Below are positions 51,993 through 62,119 of a stretch of DNA of 64,000 bases, piece after piece. Source of the stretch: an uncultured Latescibacterota bacterium. GTDB taxonomy: Bacteria; Latescibacterota; UBA2968; UBA8231. Position 1 is the stretch's first letter. Each line of letters opens with the position of its first letter. The DNA lies in contig OY282352.1 of assembly GCA_958295495.1 (NCBI GenBank), forward strand, positions 5,278,049-5,342,048, written 5' to 3'. The position numbers and the translations under genes are program-made. The notes beneath the pieces were generated by a model, which was not told the origin of the DNA, searched no databases, and worked only from the letters and a program-made list of their open reading frames with translations.

Positions 51993-53171
51993 TCAGGGCG
52001 CAGTTGGGGCCTTAATTTTGTGATTCTCCGGCATGCCAGCGGGGCGTGGACAGAAGTATCGGAAATCGCATGCCGCACATGTCGCCTCATCCTCACAGTT
52101 CGGTGCCCAAGCCTCAAGAATGTTGCGGCCATCCGCTTCGTCCACGACATCTTCCTCTGCTTGCCGAACGACATCATCGAAGGACTCAAGGGCACGCTTT
52201 ATGCTCTGCTCGGAAACTGGAATGATCCGAATAGCCCGACGTAGCCGAAAATCAAGCGATAGTTGACTTGTGTCCATGCCTTCCCGCCACATTCTAATAA
52301 TCTGCTTATCCTGATCAGTCCATCTATCCTGATCGGTTGAGCGATTCGATAGGCCGCGCTGAATCGCTTGCATCTCTGCATCACCAAGTATCAATTCGTT
52401 TATGTAAATCAGGATTCCCGCCACAACTGGCAACGCCTCGGGCTGTCGTCCTCTCAACCAAGCGTAGGTTTGAATTTGCCAATCTCCTTGCTCCCAATAG
52501 GGTTCGTCAGTCAGGGGGCGTCTCGCACCTTTATAGTCGACGATAACCTCGAATGTTTCTGGCAGGTCTGAGCAAACTTGCTGAACGTACTGACGAATAA
52601 AATTGTCTTCAGAGGCTTCCGAAAGGGTTACATGGGTCAAGACGTCAATAACGCCGTGTACTTCATAGTTGTCGCAGCGAAGGTCCTTCACACTATCTGG
52701 CACTGCTCTTGTTCCAATCACTTTGCGCTCTGTAGAAGCAATGAGCGGAAACAGGTGTGGTCCCAACTCATTCACCGCGACTTTAACGCGACGGTACGCC
52801 GAGTCGCGAGCGGCTGTGCTGCGAGCTTGCTTGCCCTGCTGTCTAAGAGCATCCTCTACTGCGCCGGCAAATTTACCAATATCGTGGTTTTCCCACCTCG
52901 GAGAATCTTGACGCCATTCGCGTTTTGTGCATGGCCAAGGAAAATCAGGTGGCTGTTGGCCCTCTTGTCGCAGTTCAGCCCAAAACCGATAGGACATTTC
53001 TAGCGTACCATGTAGGAATTCTCCGAACCAGAGTTGAACCGGCCTCGACGGTGGCAAGGCACTGCCGTTGTGATAGCGATACTGTAGCCGACAGCGTAGG
53101 TAGGACAGCAAGTCGCCTATGAGCGAATAGGAAGGAACAATATGTTCTGGACGTTTGATTTCGAGTTCCAT
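51993..53171 (-). CDS. PD-(D/E)XK nuclease of Cas4/AddB type, probable Fe-S protein
   Basis: 392 residues from ATG 53171 (MELEIKRPEHIV). An upstream ATG at 53222 would overlap the helicase gene. The nuclease core is visible: VHGVIDVLTH (motif II aspartate) and FEVIVDYKGARRPL (D-x-K). Four cysteines suit a 4Fe-4S cluster as in Cas4/AddB/Dna2: one near the N-terminus (YLRCRLQYRY) and C-x2-C-x5-C at the end (TCAACDFRYFC). With the UvrD-like helicase upstream it would act as an end-processing helicase-nuclease, like AddAB. It is the last gene of the five-gene cassette. Confidence 0.85.
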   Translation of the reverse strand: MELEIKRPEHIVPSYSLIGDLLSYLRCRLQYRYHNGSALPPSRPVQLWFGEFLHGTLEMSYRFWAELRQEGQQPPDFPWPCTKREWRQDSPRWENHDIGKFAGAVEDALRQQGKQARSTAARDSAYRRVKVAVNELGPHLFPLIASTERKVIGTRAVPDSVKDLRCDNYEVHGVIDVLTHVTLSEASEDNFIRQYVQQVCSDLPETFEVIVDYKGARRPLTDEPYWEQGDWQIQTYAWLRGRQPEALPVVAGILIYINELILGDAEMQAIQRGLSNRSTDQDRWTDQDKQIIRMWREGMDTSQLSLDFRLRRAIRIIPVSEQSIKRALESFDDVVRQAEEDVVDEADGRNILEAWAPNCEDEATCAACDFRYFCPRPAGMPENHKIKAPTAP

Positions 53172-54848
53172 GTCAATTTCCGGTAGTGCGTTGGGATTAC
53201 AGCAGCAAGAATGGTGGCTCAATTCGAACAGGAGGTTGGCGACTACTGTATTCCTGCCTCCATGGCCAAGTCTTGTCGCGACACCAACCTAAGGCGATAT
53301 TCGGAATTGACTTTTGGGTGTGGTTTTTTCCGGTTCCATAGCGCAAGCAGTTCTCGCAGCCCACGAGCATCAGCACAGACTGTGGTCGGCTATAGGCGAC
53401 ATAGTAGAGTCGCACCAAGTCGTCAAAAGTACGGTCCAATCCTTTACGGGTATTTCGGAGTGGAGCAGTTAGATAAGACTCTACGTCATTTTCAGCTTGT
53501 ACTACATTTGAAATGCGATCCGGGAATCTCAAAAATCGCTGCATCCGATGATCTCTTGTAAAACGACTTCCAACATCAACTATTACTAAGGGAAATTCCA
53601 GTCCCTTTGCTTGATGGATAGTCATAAATTGCAAACGATCACGAGGAACACTTGGCATAATGTCTTCATCGACTTCAACCTCATTTTCCGCGATGGGCAA
53701 GAGGGCATCTCGAACAAGGCTTAATCGACTCAAGCTTACATGGTCATCGGAAGTATTCTGTAGAAGATTCATACGATATGGAGATGCCATACCTGCGCTC
53801 GCAATGATGCGCGTAATGGCCTCCAGCCATACTTGATGCTCGGGATTACGCTGAAATTCAGGCATCCAAGAGATCAGCTTAAAGATAAGTTCCAGAACTG
53901 GCCAGTCTTGAGGAAAGTCTTCTGTTGCTTTTCCCACCGCGGCATTTTGCCAATCTCTAATGAATCCTCTGAGTGCTTGGCCATCATTCGGAGGCGGATT
54001 TGAATCAACAAACTGCTGAGCCTTTTGCCTCCATTGCATAAGAAAGAACCTCGCCTCATTCGTCGGCATGACATCATCAATGATGGTGTTTTTTGGGTCA
54101 ACTGCTAGAAGGACGAGACCCAAGAGAGAGCGTACATCAGGAACGGTTCGCAGAGCTTGACCACGTGGATTGAAGACTTGGATACCATTGGTTTCCATTT
54201 GGTTTCGGAGTATGCCCGGAAATCGCTCCTGTAATTCATGGTTGTAGGGGCTGTAGCTCTCCTCTTCAATAGAGTGAGCTAGAAAGACCACATCCCCTAA
54301 TGCTCCGTCCTTTAACATCCGAATTTCTCGACCTGTTTCGCCAACAGGAAGACCTCGTTGATTAACCAGCGTACTCAGAAATTCAGCAAGGCCTGTTGCT
54401 AGACTTTCCTGATCAGGCCTGAACATGCCGATTACGGGAATAGATTCACTTGCTCGGGTTACTGTGACTAATGGTTTTGGAGGGATTATTCTTACAGGAG
54501 AAAAACTTGGGTCACTTGTAATATAATCATTATAGAACTGCACAATCTCCGGCCTTGACCGAAAGTTTCTGGTCATGTCCACGCGACTAGTTTTTCGTCT
54601 TGTTGCTTGCTCACAACGACTGGCAAATTCAGTGAAAAGTTCGACCGAGCCTCCCCGGAACCTGTACATGGATTGATCGTCGTCCCCTACAATGGTCATT
54701 GATAGGCAAGGCATACCTATAAGCATCTGAAAATAAATGGCTTCCTGAAGCGGATTCGTGTCCTGATATTCGTCGATCAAAACTACTCGTAGGTCTTTAA
54801 GCCATTCGTCAAGCGATCCACCGGACAGTTGCTGGAGGAACTGTTTCT

Positions 54849-54857
54849 CTAAAATTG
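54849..54857. repeat. Target-site duplication, left copy
   Basis: CTAAAATTG directly abuts the left IS end; the same nine bases abut the right end at 56024-56032. Confidence 0.85.
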
Positions 54858-56023
54858 CTAAGTACACGACAGTAATCTAAGTTGTGGTACAGCCCCGATT
54901 TAGGTTTATTTGTAATCGCCGAAGATTGCATCTAAATCCTAAACACAGGAGCTGTACCGTGCTTATTCATACGCTAAAGAAAGCCCTCACGCAAGGGTCG
55001 GTATCCCTCACGCGCCACCGTATCGACCTGATCAGTCGCTTGGTGTGTGCGCTGATTCAAGTGCGTTCGGTCAATATGAAAAAACTCGCGTGTAGCCTTT
55101 CGGGGATGGCCCAGATTGACAGTCACTATCGCCGTCTCCAGCGTTTTTTCAGTAGTGCTGTTTCGCCGTCGGTGTTTACCCAGTTGATTGTATCCAAGGT
55201 CGTTCGCCCCGGCCAACAACAACTCTTAGTTATGGATCGCACCCATTGGCGATTGGGGCGCACCGATCAGAATGTGTTGTGTGTCGGCTTAGTCTATCAG
55301 GGGGTCTCGATTCCGTTGGTATATCAGTCGTTGCAAAAGCCGGGTACCTCCAACACCTCAGAGCGCAAGCGTCTCCTGACGAAGGTATTGGCCTACCTTG
55401 ATCCCCGCGTATGCTGTTTAGTCGCCGATCGCGAGTTTATCGGTCGAGCGTGGTTCGCCTTTTTGCTGGAGCAGCAGGTCGATTTTGTCATCCGCCTACG
55501 CGGCAATACATCGCTCATACTCAACGACGGTCGGCGGCGCTATGGGGCTACTTTTAATGAACGGATGCCGAGAGGTACGACCCGATCCTACCCACAGACC
55601 ACCCTCTATGACGGCTTGACCCTGAATTTGGTGTGTCACCGCCCCATCCGCGGCGAGCGCATCCTACTCATCACCAACCGAACTGACCTCAAGCAGGTGC
55701 TGGCCGTCTATGGACAACGCTGGGCTATTGAAACGACGTTTGCTTGTTTGAAATCGAGAGGATTTAACCTCGAAGACACCCATTTGACCCACCCCCAACG
55801 CTTGCACCTACTGCTGGGGCTGCTGGCATGGACGCTCCTATGGGCGCTGTTGGTAGGACGGCGGTTGCATCAGAGAAAACCCATCCCCATAAAAAAACAT
55901 GGACGACCAGCCATAAGCCTCTTTCGAAAAGGATTAGACCAACTCACACAAATCATACACCAAGCACGAGACCAACCTAAACGCGACCGACAATATCAAC
56001 ACATTTTACTGTCGTGTACTTAG
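54858..56023 (+). mobile_element. Complete IS4-family-like insertion sequence
   Basis: 1,166 bases bounded by perfect 18-base inverted repeats (left CTAAGTACACGACAGTAA at 54858-54875, right complement at 56006-56023) and flanked by the direct repeat CTAAAATTG. It holds one full-length DDE transposase gene whose stop codon lies inside the right repeat. Intact ends and duplication point to a recent insertion. The exact IS group cannot be named without a database. Confidence 0.93.
54959..56023 (+). CDS. IS4-family DDE transposase
   Basis: 354 residues from GTG 54959, chosen for the AGGAG site seven bases upstream; a GTG at 54884 is also in frame. Probable catalytic residues are Asp93 (LLVMDRTHWRLG), Asp157 (CLVADREFIG) and Glu258 (RWAIETTFACLKSRG). 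The last matches the YREK-type signature of the IS4 superfamily, where the transposase cuts and pastes the element. A C-terminal basic tail follows. Confidence 0.9.
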   Translation: MLIHTLKKALTQGSVSLTRHRIDLISRLVCALIQVRSVNMKKLACSLSGMAQIDSHYRRLQRFFSSAVSPSVFTQLIVSKVVRPGQQQLLVMDRTHWRLGRTDQNVLCVGLVYQGVSIPLVYQSLQKPGTSNTSERKRLLTKVLAYLDPRVCCLVADREFIGRAWFAFLLEQQVDFVIRLRGNTSLILNDGRRRYGATFNERMPRGTTRSYPQTTLYDGLTLNLVCHRPIRGERILLITNRTDLKQVLAVYGQRWAIETTFACLKSRGFNLEDTHLTHPQRLHLLLGLLAWTLLWALLVGRRLHQRKPIPIKKHGRPAISLFRKGLDQLTQIIHQARDQPKRDRQYQHILLSCT

Positions 56024-56032
56024 CTAAAATTG
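56024..56032. repeat. Target-site duplication, right copy
   Basis: CTAAAATTG next to the right IS end, identical to 54849-54857. Confidence 0.85.
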
Positions 56033-56754
56033 TAAAGTCAAAGACATTTGTTTCAATTGCTTGCTGGCGATAGGATTCCAGCATCTCAACAATCAATCTT
56101 TGGGCTTGCCCTGACTGTGCATAACTGTTCAAATTCACACGATCCTGTATCAAACGTTCAAGCAAGCGTTTCGTTGTTCTTAGCGCATCCCCACGATTGC
56201 GAGGAGGCTTGCTATCGAAGGTGTATCGACTCAAAAGAGTATCAAAGATAGCTTGATTTGGCACGTACAGGTTCTGAAACGCCAATCTCTTCAGAATAAG
56301 ATTACTTGCGGAAGCCTCTGCGACTACAGGCGCGAGTGTCCCTGGCAAGCGATATTCTGTCAGCACTTGTTGAACAATACTATCCAATGTGTCAATTATG
56401 CATCGATTAAGGTCAATCTGGTCGAGGTTGATATCAGGATCTGACTCAAGTTCTGTACAAAGGATTGTCCCCCAATCCAGCCAGCGTGTGCGTAGTTCGC
56501 GAGCAGCCTTTCGAGTGAATGTAGTGATCACGATGTTCTCAGGTAGAACGTCCTCTACGAAGACGAATCGCAAGGCGCGAAGTACAAGTACAGTGGTCTT
56601 TCCTGAACCTGGACCAGCAACAATTTGTAGAATACGATCATCGGCATGGAGGACAGCTTTGAGTTGATCTTCGTTATTTGGATTTCGCAGATTGCGTCCA
56701 AGGCGACTATCAACTAGATCGAGAAAACGGTCGTTATTAATCATATCGTGCTCT

Positions 56755-58581
56755 TCATCTCCCGTACTTCAAATCCAAAAAAGACGCGACGCGCTCATTT
56801 GCATCTTCCGTCTTCACAGGCAGAGGAACCGCCTCAAGGCCGGTCGCGTCGTGGCTGACCAGAAGCCATTGCCCTTTCCCAAACTTAAACGTTTGGTTCA
56901 GTATCTCATCGCCAAAACCAAATGCCTCAGAAACAGCCGTGCGGTCGGTGGCCCTCGGCAGCTTTGAGATAAAATAGGTATGAGGCTGAGACATGATGTT
57001 GGTATCAAGATAGCGAATCCGCTGGGTTGCTATACCCAGACCAATTCCAAATTTCCTTCCACGCCGTGCAATTGTTTCAGCAATTTTAGCCGAGTTTTCA
57101 TAGCTGCCAGTACCCCCTGAACGGATAAATTCATCAGCCTCGTCAAAGATGAAACTGACGGATGGATCAATGACACCGCTAAGCCTTCGACTTTCATACA
57201 GTTCACTTCCAAGATTATGCGAAAACTCCCTAAGATCGTCAGGACTATGAGATTGGATTATCCAAAGAGAATGGCGGGTTTTATCATTTAAGTCAGCTAT
57301 AATGTCCGGTAGTGTCGTACTCGCAGCTAGATGTTCGGCTGTTGACCGTTCAAGTTCTTCAAGTTTGGAAATATGATTGGCAAAGTCCCCATCCTCACGG
57401 AACTCGGCATATTGCTGCTGTTCAAGCAGTTTCTCCAATTTCTCCCTGATCTGCTTCGCGAGGTCAGGGCTAAAATGCACTTTTCTATAATCAGTCCTGA
57501 TTCGGGATTCCCTCAATGCTTCCTTGGTCAGTCCCAAGCGATTCTGACGCCTTGCTTCCTGTCTTTCTTTTGCCCAAGTGACTACCTCATTAGTAAAAAA
57601 AAGATCGTAAACGGTTATGCTTTTCGATTCGTTGAAATAGCGTACTTTCTCACTTTTGATAAAATCGAGAAAGGCCCGTTCCATTTTACTTCGCTTACCC
57701 TGAAGGGCTTTAGGAAGAAGAGTGTAGCGCAAGAACTGCGTTGTCGCCTCAGTATTTTTCGGTGCCCCTCTTAGCCCGTTGATATACTTAAACGTTCCTT
57801 CTGGAAGAGTATTCCTACCAATAGTGAGCAAACGTCCATCAACTTCATCTGAAAGAAGTTGATCAACTAAAAGGCCAGTATATTCACTCATTAAATCGAA
57901 GAACACTAACTTTATTGGCTCTTGTGTCGATGCAAAAATTTTTGCCACTATGGTTGACAAAAGATTGGATTTTCCCACTCCAGTAAAACCGAAAATAGCA
58001 AAATGAGTACGGAGCAAATCATCAATCCGCATAAGAATCTCAACATCTGCGTCGCGTACGAGTGTTCCAATCTCGGCTATATTCTTTTCGTTTTCTTTGT
58101 CAATGTCATTATTGGCAATCCGGTTTGTAGTTTCACTATCGAGTACGCGAACTTTCGATCCAACCATTGCCATGTTCGTCTCAGGCCCAATATCAAAAGA
58201 TGTATCTCCGTATAATTCCGCCTCCACGATCTCTAAGAGTGTTGGAATGGCCGCAGCTTCTATCTTCGTCGTTTCCTCCGTAGCCTCTTTATCCTGCGAC
58301 TCCCAATCTTCCGCCGCGCTACGAGCAGCCTCAACAATAAACCCTGGGTAACCCGAATTTCCACTCTGCAAAGCAAAATGCGAAGGCAACACTGAGATAA
58401 TTTCCAGTATAGACCAGCGGCGAAACTTGGCATCTGAACCAAAATTTGCAACTGCCAGCATTGTTCCTTCCTGAATTTCATTTATCGTTTCACGTGTATA
58501 ATCAAACCAGATAGTGTACCGAAATCGTGTATCGGGGGACTCCTGCATCGACATCAGAGTCCCCTCAAGCTTCTTAAACAT
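56755..58581 (-). CDS. HerA-like DNA translocase/ATPase (DUF87)
   Basis: 608 residues from ATG 58581 with GAGGT upstream, three bases after the NurA-like stop. A beta-barrel-like N-terminus precedes Walker A IFGFTGVGKSNLLSTIVAK (about 197-206), Walker B SFIFDEADEFI (about 476-486), and RRGRKFGIGLGIATQRIRYL, the arginine-finger/sensor stretch of HerA/FtsK proteins. A helical insert lies between about 290 and 420. HerA hexamers translocate DNA and load NurA nuclease; adjacency to a NurA-like gene supports the same partnership here. Confidence 0.88.
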   Translation of the reverse strand: MFKKLEGTLMSMQESPDTRFRYTIWFDYTRETINEIQEGTMLAVANFGSDAKFRRWSILEIISVLPSHFALQSGNSGYPGFIVEAARSAAEDWESQDKEATEETTKIEAAAIPTLLEIVEAELYGDTSFDIGPETNMAMVGSKVRVLDSETTNRIANNDIDKENEKNIAEIGTLVRDADVEILMRIDDLLRTHFAIFGFTGVGKSNLLSTIVAKIFASTQEPIKLVFFDLMSEYTGLLVDQLLSDEVDGRLLTIGRNTLPEGTFKYINGLRGAPKNTEATTQFLRYTLLPKALQGKRSKMERAFLDFIKSEKVRYFNESKSITVYDLFFTNEVVTWAKERQEARRQNRLGLTKEALRESRIRTDYRKVHFSPDLAKQIREKLEKLLEQQQYAEFREDGDFANHISKLEELERSTAEHLAASTTLPDIIADLNDKTRHSLWIIQSHSPDDLREFSHNLGSELYESRRLSGVIDPSVSFIFDEADEFIRSGGTGSYENSAKIAETIARRGRKFGIGLGIATQRIRYLDTNIMSQPHTYFISKLPRATDRTAVSEAFGFGDEILNQTFKFGKGQWLLVSHDATGLEAVPLPVKTEDANERVASFLDLKYGR

Positions 58582-58584
58582 GAT

Positions 58585-60408
58585 TTACCTCTTAGCAGAA
58601 TCTCTAGTCGTTCTAAAAGTATCGCTGAGTGGATTGCTACTCAGTACCCTTGTTGATGACTCGATTGTTTTGCCGACCCATCGTCCCATACTTTTGGCTC
58701 CCCAATCAGCTTTGTGCAGTGGGTCTGGATATCCAATGGCCTCAGCAAAGTGATTCTTAGTTAAGACAGACAACAAGTACATCATTACTGTTTGGCCGCG
58801 GTTTAGGTGTTCAGCATCTCTCCAAGCGAATGGCTCGACACGGCCTAGTTCACTTGTCTCGATTGGAATTTCTGCTGGCGAATCTTCTGCACCAAGAGAG
58901 TCGAGAAATGGTTGTAAGAGTCTTTCTATAAAAACGACGTGGCCCATTAATGGATTTTTCTTGTCACGACTTAAAAAAAATTGGCCAAGCGACTTCATGA
59001 AAAGACGCTCCTGATTCACAGTCCACCCCCTTATTCCACCAACCTGAGTCTTACCTATCTCATCGCGCTCGCGATGAAGCGTCATAAATGCTGAATCAAA
59101 TTCGATTGTTGCCCATGGAGTCTCTATACTATCGTCAAAACGTGGCAATGCCTCGCAGAGCATTCGATCCGTCCACGGCAGTGTATTGACCGTTAGGTTG
59201 CGAAGTTGAGGGTGAAACCCTGTCTCTAGCGCCACTCCAAAATAGTTGCGTCCAAAGTAACGAGACGCGGAATCTTTTATGATTCCATACAGTAAGACTT
59301 TGCGTTCCCAGCTTACCTCAATGAGCAAGCGCATCCCGACAGCTACTAGAAAGTTCAAATCATTGGAAGACATCCAGTGCTTCCGCAAGACTCCAGAATA
59401 ATCAGTGGTCTCGTATTGAAGTGCAGTCGGGTCTTTCTCAAGGAATAGACGCTTGCAGATATTCTGAAAAAAAGCCTTTGTATAATCCCAAGATTCACGA
59501 ACATTTACCAAAGGATCTCCGTTCTCATCTAAGACTCCGCGTTTAGCGAGCCAGCCAAGTGCTCTTCTAAGACTGGTAACTTCTACACCATAGACTTGAG
59601 CGATTGTGTTCAGATCTACTCGCTTCGTAGGCTCTCTCAAGAGCGAAGCAATAATCGTCCTAGGTCGATCCATATTCTTACTTGAAGGTATGCCAAATAT
59701 ATCGTTCACGGGTTGAGCATAGGCGACCGCTATATCTGCCTTCGTCAGTTCTCTACGGTCGTATGGGTAGCCGACCAAACCGACCCTATCTTGAGCCTGG
59801 GCAACATTTGCGAGCACTGAAGAAGGCGATAAGTCCATCAGAACAAGGTGAGGAGCATCCAAGGCAGATGATGTAATGGCATTGATCGCCAAAAAAATCT
59901 CAGCTAATTGCATTATCTGAGTGTGGACACTCGCGACGTTAGCTTCTTCTTCATTTGTCGCCAAAAATTGCTCGCCCTGCGGCTGGACCTCTTCAAGCCT
60001 TGCAAACGGTACGGGAACCCAAGCAACCATAGAAACATCCTGATCCAGACTCCAGCGCTTGTATTGAACTCTATGATCGCCAGCATCCAGTTCGAGCTCG
60101 CCGCGTGCTCCGTATGCTCCTCCAAAGAAAGTCAGCATATCGGAAAACTGCTCTCTCCTGCACGTTCCATCTATCGCAATGAATTGAAGCCGACGAGTCC
60201 CCAAATAACGTTCTATATATTCCTGTAGTCGATCGCGACCTCGCGGCGACGAAAACCACTTGCGAAAATGAACGACCTGAGTTGATAGGAATTGCTCATA
60301 AAATTCTTCGGCGGCCGAAAGCCTCTCTGAGACAAGTTCATTGTACTGATCCCGTCCAACATTTAGGGCGTCGCGGTAAGCCGTGCTAATGTCAGATGCC
60401 CTAGACAT
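58585..60408 (-). CDS. NurA-like nuclease with internal winged-helix-like insert
   Basis: 607 residues from ATG 60408, overlapping the DpdA-like stop by eight bases with AGGTGG just upstream. NurA-type active-site elements: LQFIAIDGTCRREQFSD (Asp80), APHLVLMDLSPSSVLAN (Asp192), and LLYGIIKDSASRYFGRNY (about 372-390, lysine/serine strand). Between about 250 and 300 VDLNTIAQVYGVEVTSLRRA then LGWLAKRGVLDENG looks like a winged helix. This is longer than ordinary NurA (about 300-400). The assignment rests on these motifs and on the HerA-like neighbour. Confidence 0.78.
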   Translation of the reverse strand: MSRASDISTAYRDALNVGRDQYNELVSERLSAAEEFYEQFLSTQVVHFRKWFSSPRGRDRLQEYIERYLGTRRLQFIAIDGTCRREQFSDMLTFFGGAYGARGELELDAGDHRVQYKRWSLDQDVSMVAWVPVPFARLEEVQPQGEQFLATNEEEANVASVHTQIMQLAEIFLAINAITSSALDAPHLVLMDLSPSSVLANVAQAQDRVGLVGYPYDRRELTKADIAVAYAQPVNDIFGIPSSKNMDRPRTIIASLLREPTKRVDLNTIAQVYGVEVTSLRRALGWLAKRGVLDENGDPLVNVRESWDYTKAFFQNICKRLFLEKDPTALQYETTDYSGVLRKHWMSSNDLNFLVAVGMRLLIEVSWERKVLLYGIIKDSASRYFGRNYFGVALETGFHPQLRNLTVNTLPWTDRMLCEALPRFDDSIETPWATIEFDSAFMTLHRERDEIGKTQVGGIRGWTVNQERLFMKSLGQFFLSRDKKNPLMGHVVFIERLLQPFLDSLGAEDSPAEIPIETSELGRVEPFAWRDAEHLNRGQTVMMYLLSVLTKNHFAEAIGYPDPLHKADWGAKSMGRWVGKTIESSTRVLSSNPLSDTFRTTRDSAKR

Positions 60409-62119
60409 GCCCACCTTCTTGGATACATTTATACAGCATGAGCGTGTTGTGCGCTCCCCGTCTCTTGTTGCGATTCGCCCCTCGGAATATAAGAATATGT
60501 ATTCCGATTTCCTTGCAAAAGGGACATTTACACTCTCTCCAAGGCCGTTCCTCCAGTGTTTCCTTATATCTCTTTTGCATGGACTGTATTTCACTAGATC
60601 TTTCCAAGTGGCAGTCATAACTGAGAACAGCGTCGAGAACTTCGCTGATACTGGCTTCATCCCTATCATATCTACATAGTAGGCTCAAAACTTTGTGTTC
60701 CTCTTGCTCCAATTGAGCAATATCCGCATTTGCCGCTATCAATCGCTGGCGTGTACGCCCATCGCTGGTCATCGGAACCCGCAATGCCGCATACCATTTG
60801 CCATTGATGCTGAGGTAATTCTGGTCGGAGCGGAGCCACGCTTTTCGGAAGTACGTTGCGCTATCAAAGCTGTCAATTCTAAGTTCGCGAAACACCTTTT
60901 GCAATTTGGGACGAAAAACCCCGAACAGGTGTATCCACGGTCGCTCTTTGAGTTCGTTGGCCGCGGCAATTACCGCTCTCGCAATACTCTCTATTTCGCT
61001 ATCGCTCAGTGGAACAAGGCCCCCGATCGCTAGGTGGCGGTAGCCGAGGCTACTATAATGGTGAACGGATTTAGCGTACTCCTCTGGATTGAGAGCTTGG
61101 ATAGTACCAACCGGATTGAATTGAGCCTTCCGTTTTTTCGTAGCCTCTATAAAGTCTTCTGCATTCTCACGAGTGACTTTTATTCTCTCTTGACGTTCAT
61201 TATCAGAAAGAAACGTCTTTTCTCCGTTTTTATTAATTTTTCTGACGGGAATGTGATCAACTGATGCCCCAAAGTCGAAACCATAGGACTCGTAGAGGGC
61301 GACGGCCTGCTCCACCGAAATCGTTGGCTTCTCCTCGTTCACGTAGCTGAAAGCCCCACAATCGCCAAAGAGATACTGCTCCGATGAAAGGCCGAACTGG
61401 CGGCGGAGGGGCGGTGGGGATAGAGCACCGGCTTCCGTACCTTCCAGTCGCCGTAAAGGGCCTTTTGATGTTCCATGCTGGGCAAGACTGACGAGAACAC
61501 CGTCACACATTTGTTCGGGCTGCATCAAGACGCAGCAGTGTTTGTCCTCTCTTTTTTTTCGAGTGGGTCCTGAGAAGGAGTCTTGTTCAAAGTCAAACTC
61601 CGGATCCAGAAGATCATCCCAATCGGGCAAGAAATAGCGGGTCTTGCCCGTGCCACCCTCAACCTCAGCCTTCTCGCGACGGTCCGACGATGTGTTATTG
61701 AGGAAAGACTTGATTTGACTCATCTTCAGGCCAATGGGACCCTGAAATACTTCTTCCTTGTTATTGAGCCTGTCCAGTGCAGGCTGAACGGCGGGCAGAT
61801 AGTCCCTTCCCACTGACAGGTAAACCTTCTGATGGTAGGTAGCCCATTCTTTGAGCGTCTTAGAACATTCTGAGGCTTTGACCCTAGCCGTAGCCGCGTC
61901 CATCCTCGTATCGTAGTTCTCTATTCCCTTCAGGATTCCAAACAGACCATATCTTGCAGAAAGAACGCCAATAGATACATCTTCAGGCCACTGATAGTCT
62001 CGCAAGAACTTTCTCAGAACTCGGTACGGCGGGCCATCGTAGCGGGCAAGCGCAGGAAGCAAACCATCACAATCTCGTTTGGCCTGCGAACAACTGAGAA
62101 CGAGTAATTTTTTATTCAT
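60401..62119 (-). CDS. dpdA: DpdA-like DNA 7-deazaguanine transglycosylase with DUF6884-like domain
   Basis: 572 residues from ATG 62119. Residues 1-~130 resemble DUF6884 (KLLVLSCSQAKRDCDG, YDGPPYR, VLSARYGLFG). The rest is a TGT-superfamily barrel: FGDCGAFSYVNEEKP (Asp253, the general acid/base position of DSGGF), GYRHLAIGGLVPLSD (GGL base-binding loop), IDSFDSATYFRKAW (Asp419, nucleophile position) and a CxCxxC...H zinc site (Cys530, 532, 535, His557). Queuine tRNA enzymes lack the N-terminal domain and have DSGGFQ. DpdA relatives exchange guanine in DNA for preQ0-type bases. It is first in the cassette. No preQ0 synthesis or dpdB/dpdC genes are nearby. Confidence 0.8.
   Translation of the reverse strand: MNKKLLVLSCSQAKRDCDGLLPALARYDGPPYRVLRKFLRDYQWPEDVSIGVLSARYGLFGILKGIENYDTRMDAATARVKASECSKTLKEWATYHQKVYLSVGRDYLPAVQPALDRLNNKEEVFQGPIGLKMSQIKSFLNNTSSDRREKAEVEGGTGKTRYFLPDWDDLLDPEFDFEQDSFSGPTRKKREDKHCCVLMQPEQMCDGVLVSLAQHGTSKGPLRRLEGTEAGALSPPPLRRQFGLSSEQYLFGDCGAFSYVNEEKPTISVEQAVALYESYGFDFGASVDHIPVRKINKNGEKTFLSDNERQERIKVTRENAEDFIEATKKRKAQFNPVGTIQALNPEEYAKSVHHYSSLGYRHLAIGGLVPLSDSEIESIARAVIAAANELKERPWIHLFGVFRPKLQKVFRELRIDSFDSATYFRKAWLRSDQNYLSINGKWYAALRVPMTSDGRTRQRLIAANADIAQLEQEEHKVLSLLCRYDRDEASISEVLDAVLSYDCHLERSSEIQSMQKRYKETLEERPWRECKCPFCKEIGIHILIFRGANRNKRRGAHNTLMLYKCIQEGGHV

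What the first reader, a model, noticed from the sequence alone, without database searches (positions are those of the whole stretch)
60401..62119. DUF6884-like domain fused to a TGT/DpdA barrel, with no local preQ0 pathway
Both catalytic aspartates and the zinc site are kept, so the enzyme should be active, but queC/D/E, folE, dpdB and dpdC are absent nearby. Either preQ0 comes from the genome elsewhere, or the enzyme uses another base, or it acts as a hydrolase/lyase through the N-terminal domain.
Basis: partly seen in the sequence, partly recalled or inferred. Interest (0 to 1): 0.65.

Follow-up and report, generated by a model that had tools for sequence, protein, structure and literature searches.

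The report
DNA 7-deazaguanine marking system, new nuclease partners
This is a gene for a DNA-marking enzyme (DpdA, swapping guanine for a 7-deazaguanine) fused to a domain related to its usual partner enzyme (DpdC), sitting in a five-gene cluster with DNA-motor and DNA-cutting enzymes that probably destroy unmarked foreign DNA, an arrangement of the known Dpd defence system for which I found no description in the papers I could search.

Summary
In detail: window 60401-62119 (-) encodes a 572-aa DUF6884-TGT fusion with the catalytic aspartates and zinc ligands kept and no preQ0 genes in the window. The barrel is a true DpdA (NCBIfam equivalog 351 bits against a cut-off of 200; best structure 7UI4, the Salmonella preQ0 insertase). 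Two reader claims change. (1) dpdC is not simply missing: DUF6884 is the domain of DpdC, and the fusion also occurs in cyanobacterial and Paenibacillus proteins annotated DpdA, and in reverse order in a haloarchaeon. (2) The genome has folE, queD, queE and queC elsewhere, so preQ0 should be available. No exotic base or lyase is needed. DpdB-like genes are absent from the genome. The UvrD-nuclease pair recurs beside DpdA in rhizobia, cyanobacteria, an archaeon and metagenomic contigs: 7 of 8 plasmids with the nuclease also carry DpdA. Best reading: a compact Dpd modification-restriction system whose dpdD-K restriction module is replaced by helicase/translocase nucleases. New variant of a known kind; function inferred, not tested.

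The parts
60401..62119 (-). DpdC-DpdA fusion, 572 aa (first gene of the operon)
   Evidence: ORF and translation; NCBIfam DpdA equivalog 351 bits, cut-off 200; 74% identical full-length homologue in L024/L026
61682..62119 (-). N-terminal DUF6884 / DpdC-type domain, residues 1-146 (motifs C10-x3-K14, Y27-x-G29, S54-A-x-x-G58, Y69)
   Evidence: Pfam DUF6884 2.5e-4; hhalign to DpdC prob 94.9, E 4.7e-8 and to fused DpdC domains prob 97.6, E 3.6e-12; motif set shared by 18 sequences
60419..61648 (-). DpdA (DNA guanine transglycosylase) domain, residues 158-567; D253, D288, Q341, D419, zinc C530/C532/C535/H557
   Evidence: 7UI4 phmmer E 7e-65 over 158-567; Foldseek 7UI4 E 1.3e-31 against about 1e-9 for the next TGTs; alignment with canonical TGT
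58585..60408 (-). NurA-like nuclease, about 607 aa, ATG overlapping the end of the fusion gene by 8 nt
   Evidence: 87% identical in L024; four NurA-like motifs FIAIDGT, HLVLMDLS, GIIKDS, GYPDPLH; lies just before HerA; no Pfam or PDB hit, so inferred; start and overlap
56755..58581 (-). HerA-type ATPase/translocase, 608 aa
   Evidence: Pfam DUF87 3e-16; PADLOC HerA 1.4e-80; 81% identical in L024
56024..56744 (-). UvrD-like helicase, 5' part (interrupted)
   Evidence: Pfam UvrD 4.5e-24; intact 815-aa orthologue at L024:7125-9572
54858..56023 (+). Insertion sequence with DDE transposase (54884-56023), 28-nt inverted repeats, 9-bp target duplication CAATTTTAG; splits the UvrD gene
   Evidence: inverted repeats, target-site duplication, Pfam DDE_Tnp_1 9.7e-19
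53197..54857 (-). UvrD-like helicase, 3' part
   Evidence: Pfam UvrD 6.7e-17 and UvrD_C; 78% identical to the matching part of the L024 helicase
51993..53171 (-). PD-(D/E)XK nuclease with four conserved Cys (Cas4/AddB-like), 392 aa
   Evidence: Pfam PDDEXK_1 9e-13; D232, D268-Y-K270 and Cys conserved in four relatives, numbering of L024; start ATG 53171

Best explanation
A compact, horizontally acquired Dpd-type DNA modification-restriction system. The DpdA half exchanges guanine in the cell's own DNA for preQ0 made by the host's FolE-QueD-QueE-QueC. The fused DpdC-type domain then processes or positions the inserted base (in Salmonella DpdC converts dPreQ0 to the 7-amido form). The mark labels self DNA. 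Unmarked invading DNA is attacked by two motor-nuclease pairs encoded in the same operon: HerA with a NurA-like nuclease, and a UvrD helicase with a PD-(D/E)XK nuclease. These stand in place of the usual dpdD-K restriction genes. In this copy the UvrD gene is split by an insertion sequence, so restriction is probably impaired here. Shown by sequence: DpdA identity, DpdC-domain homology, preQ0 genes, operon conservation and recurrent linkage of DpdA with UvrD-nuclease. Inferred: DNA as the target, the final base, self/non-self marking, and the restriction role.
For: DpdA: NCBIfam equivalog 351 bits, cut-off 200; 7UI4 best by sequence and fold; catalytic and zinc residues kept. DpdC: profile comparison E 4.7e-8 to DpdC and 3.6e-12 to fused DpdC domains; true DpdC hits DUF6884; GATOR-GC names DUF6884 as the dpdC domain (PMC11888242); DUF6884-DpdA fusions in RefSeq DpdAs and the reverse order in Halobaculum. 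preQ0 genes in the genome. Five-gene operon conserved at 74-87% per protein in a second genome at another chromosomal site. The UvrD-PDDEXK pair sits beside DpdA in L032, L038 and L023 and beside DpdC-DpdB-DpdA-DpdB plus queCDE in Rhizobium and Bradyrhizobium; 7 of 8 plasmids with the nuclease also carry a DpdA relative, while only 37 of 72,556 plasmids do. DpdC-DpdA + NurA-like + HerA also in L034; a Picosynechococcus plasmid carries fusion, NurA, HerA, UvrD and nuclease together. Cluster GC 0.48 in a 0.60 background.
Against: No function was tested. The window-type DUF6884 is closer to free-standing HerA-associated DUF6884 (34-37%) than to DpdC (18-19%) and reads YD.RM where DpdC reads Y..T; an Aulosira plasmid has this DUF6884 near HerA without DpdA, so its function may differ from DpdC. 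DpdB is absent from the genome. NurA is inferred from motifs only; no profile hit and the model failed. One UvrD-nuclease pair lies next to DISARM genes without DpdA, and in two archaeal plasmids nuclease and DpdA are tens of kb apart.
Confidence: 0.68

Rival explanations
1. The DUF6884 half is not a DpdC-like nitrile-acting enzyme but a DNA-lesion or modified-base reader (YaaA/YfjM-like) that aims HerA-nuclease complexes; DpdA still marks DNA, with preQ0 as the final base.
For: Pfam authors relate DUF6884 to the DNA-binding protein YaaA and note YfjM among abasic-site interactors (PMC11701544); closest relatives of this domain are HerA-linked free-standing proteins, one without DpdA; other standalone copies sit by PAPS-reductase-like genes.
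Against: Domain fused to DpdA in both orders in distant lineages; homologous to DpdC with the same C-K, YxG, SAxxG and Tyr motifs; where DpdA-DUF6884 fusions occur a separate DpdC was not seen.
Confidence: 0.25
2. The operon is a DNA-repair or phage-counter-defence cassette rather than modification-restriction: DpdA marks DNA of a mobile element or phage, and the helicase-nucleases serve recombination.
For: UvrD-PDDEXK-DpdA on a contig classed as viral (L038) and DUF6884/DpdA in phage-like contigs; UvrD resembles AddA and the nuclease resembles Cas4/AddB.
Against: The window and L024 loci are chromosomal without nearby phage genes; rhizobial loci carry full DpdC-DpdB-DpdA-DpdB plus queCDE next to the pair; one pair sits in a DISARM locus; the genome already has a separate NurA-HerA.
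Confidence: 0.12
3. The protein is a tRNA-guanine transglycosylase with an extra domain, acting in queuosine biology.
For: TGT fold family; the L024 cluster lies beside canonical tgt.
Against: Canonical tgt is separate in both genomes; DpdA equivalog score; 7UI4 far ahead of TGTs.
Confidence: 0.03
4. The fusion acts as a glycosylase or lyase removing bases from foreign DNA.
For: TGT chemistry passes through a base-free covalent intermediate (established knowledge); the operon encodes nucleases.
Against: All exchange-reaction and base-pocket residues kept; preQ0 supply present; related islands carry queCDE next to DpdA.
Confidence: 0.04

Closest known systems
Dpd (dpdA-K) 7-deazaguanine DNA modification-restriction island, S. 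Montevideo type
   Same: DpdA orthologue (7UI4), DpdC-type domain, preQ0 dependence expected, horizontally acquired, nuclease/helicase partners
   Different: DpdC fused to DpdA; no DpdB; no dpdD-K found; restriction genes are NurA-like, HerA, UvrD and PD-(D/E)XK nuclease
BREX-related capture (BRC) systems with HerA/FtsK plus TGT (PMC12839542)
   Same: HerA translocase and a TGT/DpdA in one operon, without DpdB
   Different: None of the BRC components PglZ, BrxC-like DUF6079, STAND NTPase, DUF4007 or GNAT was found; has NurA-like, UvrD and PDDEXK instead
Cyanobacterial and Paenibacillus DpdC-DpdA fusions annotated DpdA (e.g. WP_015211588)
   Same: Same domain order and motifs; Picosynechococcus also carries UvrD, PDDEXK, NurA and HerA on the plasmid
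   Different: About 35% identical in the barrel; longer linker; accompanied by a second TGT and DEAD helicases
HerA-NurA nuclease complexes (archaeal type; HerA-linked anti-phage systems)
   Same: HerA translocase with a NurA-like nuclease encoded side by side
   Different: Very divergent NurA with a long insert; linked to DNA modification; the genome has a separate NurA/HerA
AddAB / RecB-like helicase-nuclease
   Same: UvrD-family helicase with a four-Cys PD-(D/E)XK nuclease
   Different: Dedicated pair linked to DpdA, much smaller proteins than AddA/AddB

Membership tests
Bacterial DpdA | Meets DpdA equivalog model | tested here: met
   NF041059 351 bits, cut-off 200
Bacterial DpdA | Catalytic Asp pair, zinc ligands, closest structure 7UI4, no PUA domain | tested here: met
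Bacterial DpdA | Inserts preQ0 into DNA | not testable with these tools
   needs mass spectrometry
DpdC | Sequence homology and shared motifs with DpdC | tested here: met
   hhalign E 4.7e-8, motifs
DpdC | Scores against PADLOC DpdC models | tested here: not met
   no PADLOC DpdC hit for the window protein at E 0.1; locus B relative only 6e-4; so related to, but not filed as, DpdC
DpdC | Converts dPreQ0 to dADG | not testable with these tools
   biochemistry needed
Dpd system (canonical dpdA-K) | DpdB present | tested here: not met
   no DndB/DGQHR match in the genome; relatives in rhizobia have it
Dpd system (canonical dpdA-K) | dpdD-K restriction genes | tested here: not met
   neighbouring genes hit HerA, UvrD and PDDEXK models, none hit DpdD-K
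Dpd system (canonical dpdA-K) | preQ0 supply (FolE, QueD, QueE, QueC) | tested here: met
   in the genome, not local
BRC system | PglZ, DUF6079, STAND NTPase, DUF4007 with HerA | tested here: not met
   none among the operon genes or the neighbouring genes tested downstream in the window
NurA | Pfam NurA match | tested here: not met
   no hit for window gene 2; motifs only
HerA | HerA central ATPase domain | tested here: met
   Pfam 3e-16, PADLOC 1.4e-80

The most novel reading that the evidence does not exclude
A distinct class of 7-deazaguanine modification-restriction in which a single DpdC-DpdA fusion marks self DNA without DpdB, and unmarked DNA is destroyed by two cooperating motor-nucleases (HerA-NurA-like and UvrD-PD-(D/E)XK), the latter being a general alternative restriction arm of Dpd islands across bacteria and archaea.
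Probability: 0.5. Interest if true: 0.75.

Novelty: new variant of a known kind. Interest (0 to 1): 0.6.

Why it matters
[quoted passage not shown] A minimal version, with modification in one protein and restriction in two recognisable motor-nuclease pairs, would make that question directly testable. It also gives DUF6884, a family of unknown function in Pfam, a concrete chemical hypothesis through its fusion to DpdA in both domain orders. The UvrD-nuclease pair could serve as a marker for finding unrecognised Dpd islands.

Tried and rejected
The genome-contig scan with a two-sequence alignment chose poor patterns and found only the Latescibacteria homologue; tblastn on plasmids and viral scans with a wider alignment worked better. 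The NurA-like gene: structure prediction from two sequences failed (pLDDT 33), and PDB profile search and hhalign to other NurA-like genes gave nothing significant; a viral scan found none. BLAST of DpdC against the fusion was not significant pairwise; only profile comparison and motifs link them. HerA on plasmids and phages: no close relatives. The original Dpd papers (Thiaville 2016, Yuan 2018, Gedara 2023) are not held, so their content is taken from citing papers and a fusion or UvrD link described there cannot be excluded. The tRNA-TGT reading and the lyase reading were rejected on residue conservation and DpdA orthology.
Full report
WHAT IS THERE. The minus-strand ORF 60401-62119 encodes 572 residues. 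Residues 2-146 resemble DUF6884 (Pfam 2.5e-4, below the cut-off), and residues 158-567 are a DpdA: PADLOC 2e-98, NCBIfam equivalog NF041059 351 bits against a cut-off of 200, and the Salmonella DNA preQ0 insertase 7UI4 at 7e-65. A nine-sequence AlphaFold2 model (mean pLDDT 73; barrel good, N-terminal domain poor) finds 7UI4 first with E 1.3e-31, while tRNA enzymes come at about 1e-9. Aligned with the genome's own tRNA TGT, D253 and D419 match the two catalytic aspartates, D288 and Q341 the base-pocket Asp and Gln, and C530, C532, C535 and H557 the zinc ligands.

THE N-TERMINAL DOMAIN IS OF THE DpdC KIND. A paper mining dpd islands names DUF6884 as the domain found in dpdC (PMC11888242), and an Enterobacter DpdC scores against it. 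Profile comparison links the window-type domain to DpdC (E 4.7e-8) and, more strongly, to the N-terminal domain of cyanobacterial and Paenibacillus proteins annotated as DpdA (E 3.6e-12); those in turn match DpdC at 3.4e-16. Eighteen sequences share C[STN]xxK, YxG, S[AS]xxG and a following Tyr. Halobaculum carries the same two domains in the reverse order. Caution: the window domain is nearer to free-standing DUF6884 proteins in HerA loci (34-37%) than to DpdC (18-19%), misses PADLOC's DpdC models, and such a protein occurs in an Aulosira plasmid near HerA without DpdA. So homology to DpdC is shown; the DpdC reaction is not.

preQ0. None of the pathway genes lies in the window, but the same chromosome has queC and queE side by side, queD and folE near each other, and a canonical tgt. 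DpdB (DndB/DGQHR) was not found anywhere in the genome; a BREX paper notes that DpdB has been suggested dispensable in some clusters (PMC12839542).

THE OPERON. Downstream on the same strand, nearly without gaps, are a NurA-like gene (58585-60408, 8-nt overlap with the fusion), HerA (56755-58581), a UvrD helicase (53197-56744) and a PD-(D/E)XK nuclease with four conserved cysteines (51993-53171). The UvrD gene is split by a 1.17-kb insertion sequence with inverted repeats and a 9-bp duplication. A second Latescibacteria genome has the five genes intact, 74-87% identical per protein, at a different site next to tgt. GC is 0.48 in both clusters against 0.60 and 0.56 around them, as expected of a mobile cassette. 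NurA is the weakest assignment: motifs FIAIDGT, HLVLMDLS, GIIKDS and GYPDPLH and its place before HerA support it, but no model matched and the structure prediction failed.

RECURRENCE. The UvrD-nuclease pair lies beside DpdA in a GC-rich metagenomic contig with a 50%-identical fusion (L032), in a viral contig (L038) and on a Scytonema plasmid (L023). Searching plasmids with the nuclease gave eight records, seven of which also carry a DpdA relative, against 37 of 72,556 records overall (hypergeometric about 4e-23, which ignores relatedness and plasmid size). In Rhizobium and Bradyrhizobium the pair directly adjoins DpdC-DpdB-DpdA-DpdB and queCDE, with no dpdD-K among the neighbouring genes that were annotated or tested. 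Halobaculum has the pair with queC, folE, queE, queD and the reverse fusion. In two other archaeal plasmids the nuclease and DpdA are 28-40 kb apart. The eighth record has the pair beside DISARM genes. NurA-like plus HerA follow a DpdC-DpdA fusion in L034, and one Picosynechococcus plasmid has fusion, NurA (Pfam 8e-6), HerA, UvrD and nuclease. The window genome holds a second locus with free-standing DUF6884, HerA, a weak NurA match and a phage-type TGT, next to EcoRV-like restriction genes.

MECHANISM. The simplest account is modification-restriction: DpdA plus the DpdC-type domain mark self DNA, and the motor-nucleases attack unmarked DNA. HerA-NurA from Thermococcus degrades double-stranded DNA and is discussed as antiviral (PMC12977600). 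Each functional step is inference from homology and linkage.

KNOWN OR NEW. DpdA, DpdC and their fusion are known or already annotated. Within the papers held I found no description of Dpd islands with UvrD-PDDEXK or NurA-HerA; the original Dpd papers and the 2024 review are not held, so this is not proof of novelty. BRC systems pair HerA with TGT, but their other components were not found here.

Noticed in passing
L011:9937-17839 (own genome, C1:2145936-2153838): Second related locus: free-standing DUF6884, HerA, NurA-like and a phage-type DpdA/TGT, then a MetE-like gene, an EcoRV-like endonuclease (Pfam 1e-108) and a D12 adenine methylase; GC 0.48 in a 0.60 genome.
   Followed up: partly
L056:5841-7573 and L057:6021-7561: Free-standing DUF6884 directly after a PAPS-reductase-like gene and before a ParB-family gene on Shinella and Agrobacterium plasmids, without DpdA; L036 also has a PAPS-reductase-like gene right after a DUF6884-DpdA fusion.
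   Followed up: partly
L054:14477-17383: Haloarchaeal 968-aa DpdA relative carrying DUF6884 at its C-terminus, the reverse domain order.
   Followed up: partly
L055:6716-9945: The same UvrD-PD-(D/E)XK pair beside DISARM genes (drmA, DUF1998, drmC) in Nostoc N6, without DpdA nearby.
   Followed up: no
L027:6159-7082, L028:12308-13255, L022:11203-12126: A second, short TGT-like gene (about 305-315 aa); between two DEAD/DEAH helicases in the cyanobacterial DpdC-DpdA islands, and just downstream of DpdA in Paenibacillus; role unknown.
   Followed up: no
L018:8094 and L051:9124: Annotated DpdC starts appear too short: the conserved TC..K motif lies in frame upstream in both.
   Followed up: yes
window 54858-56023: Insertion sequence with 9-bp duplication CAATTTTAG and near-intact inverted repeats, so probably a recent insertion into the UvrD gene.
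   Followed up: yes
L012 (own genome C1:3186818-3187435): A second strong QueC-family match (199 bits) away from queE; not determined whether it is a true QueC.
   Followed up: no
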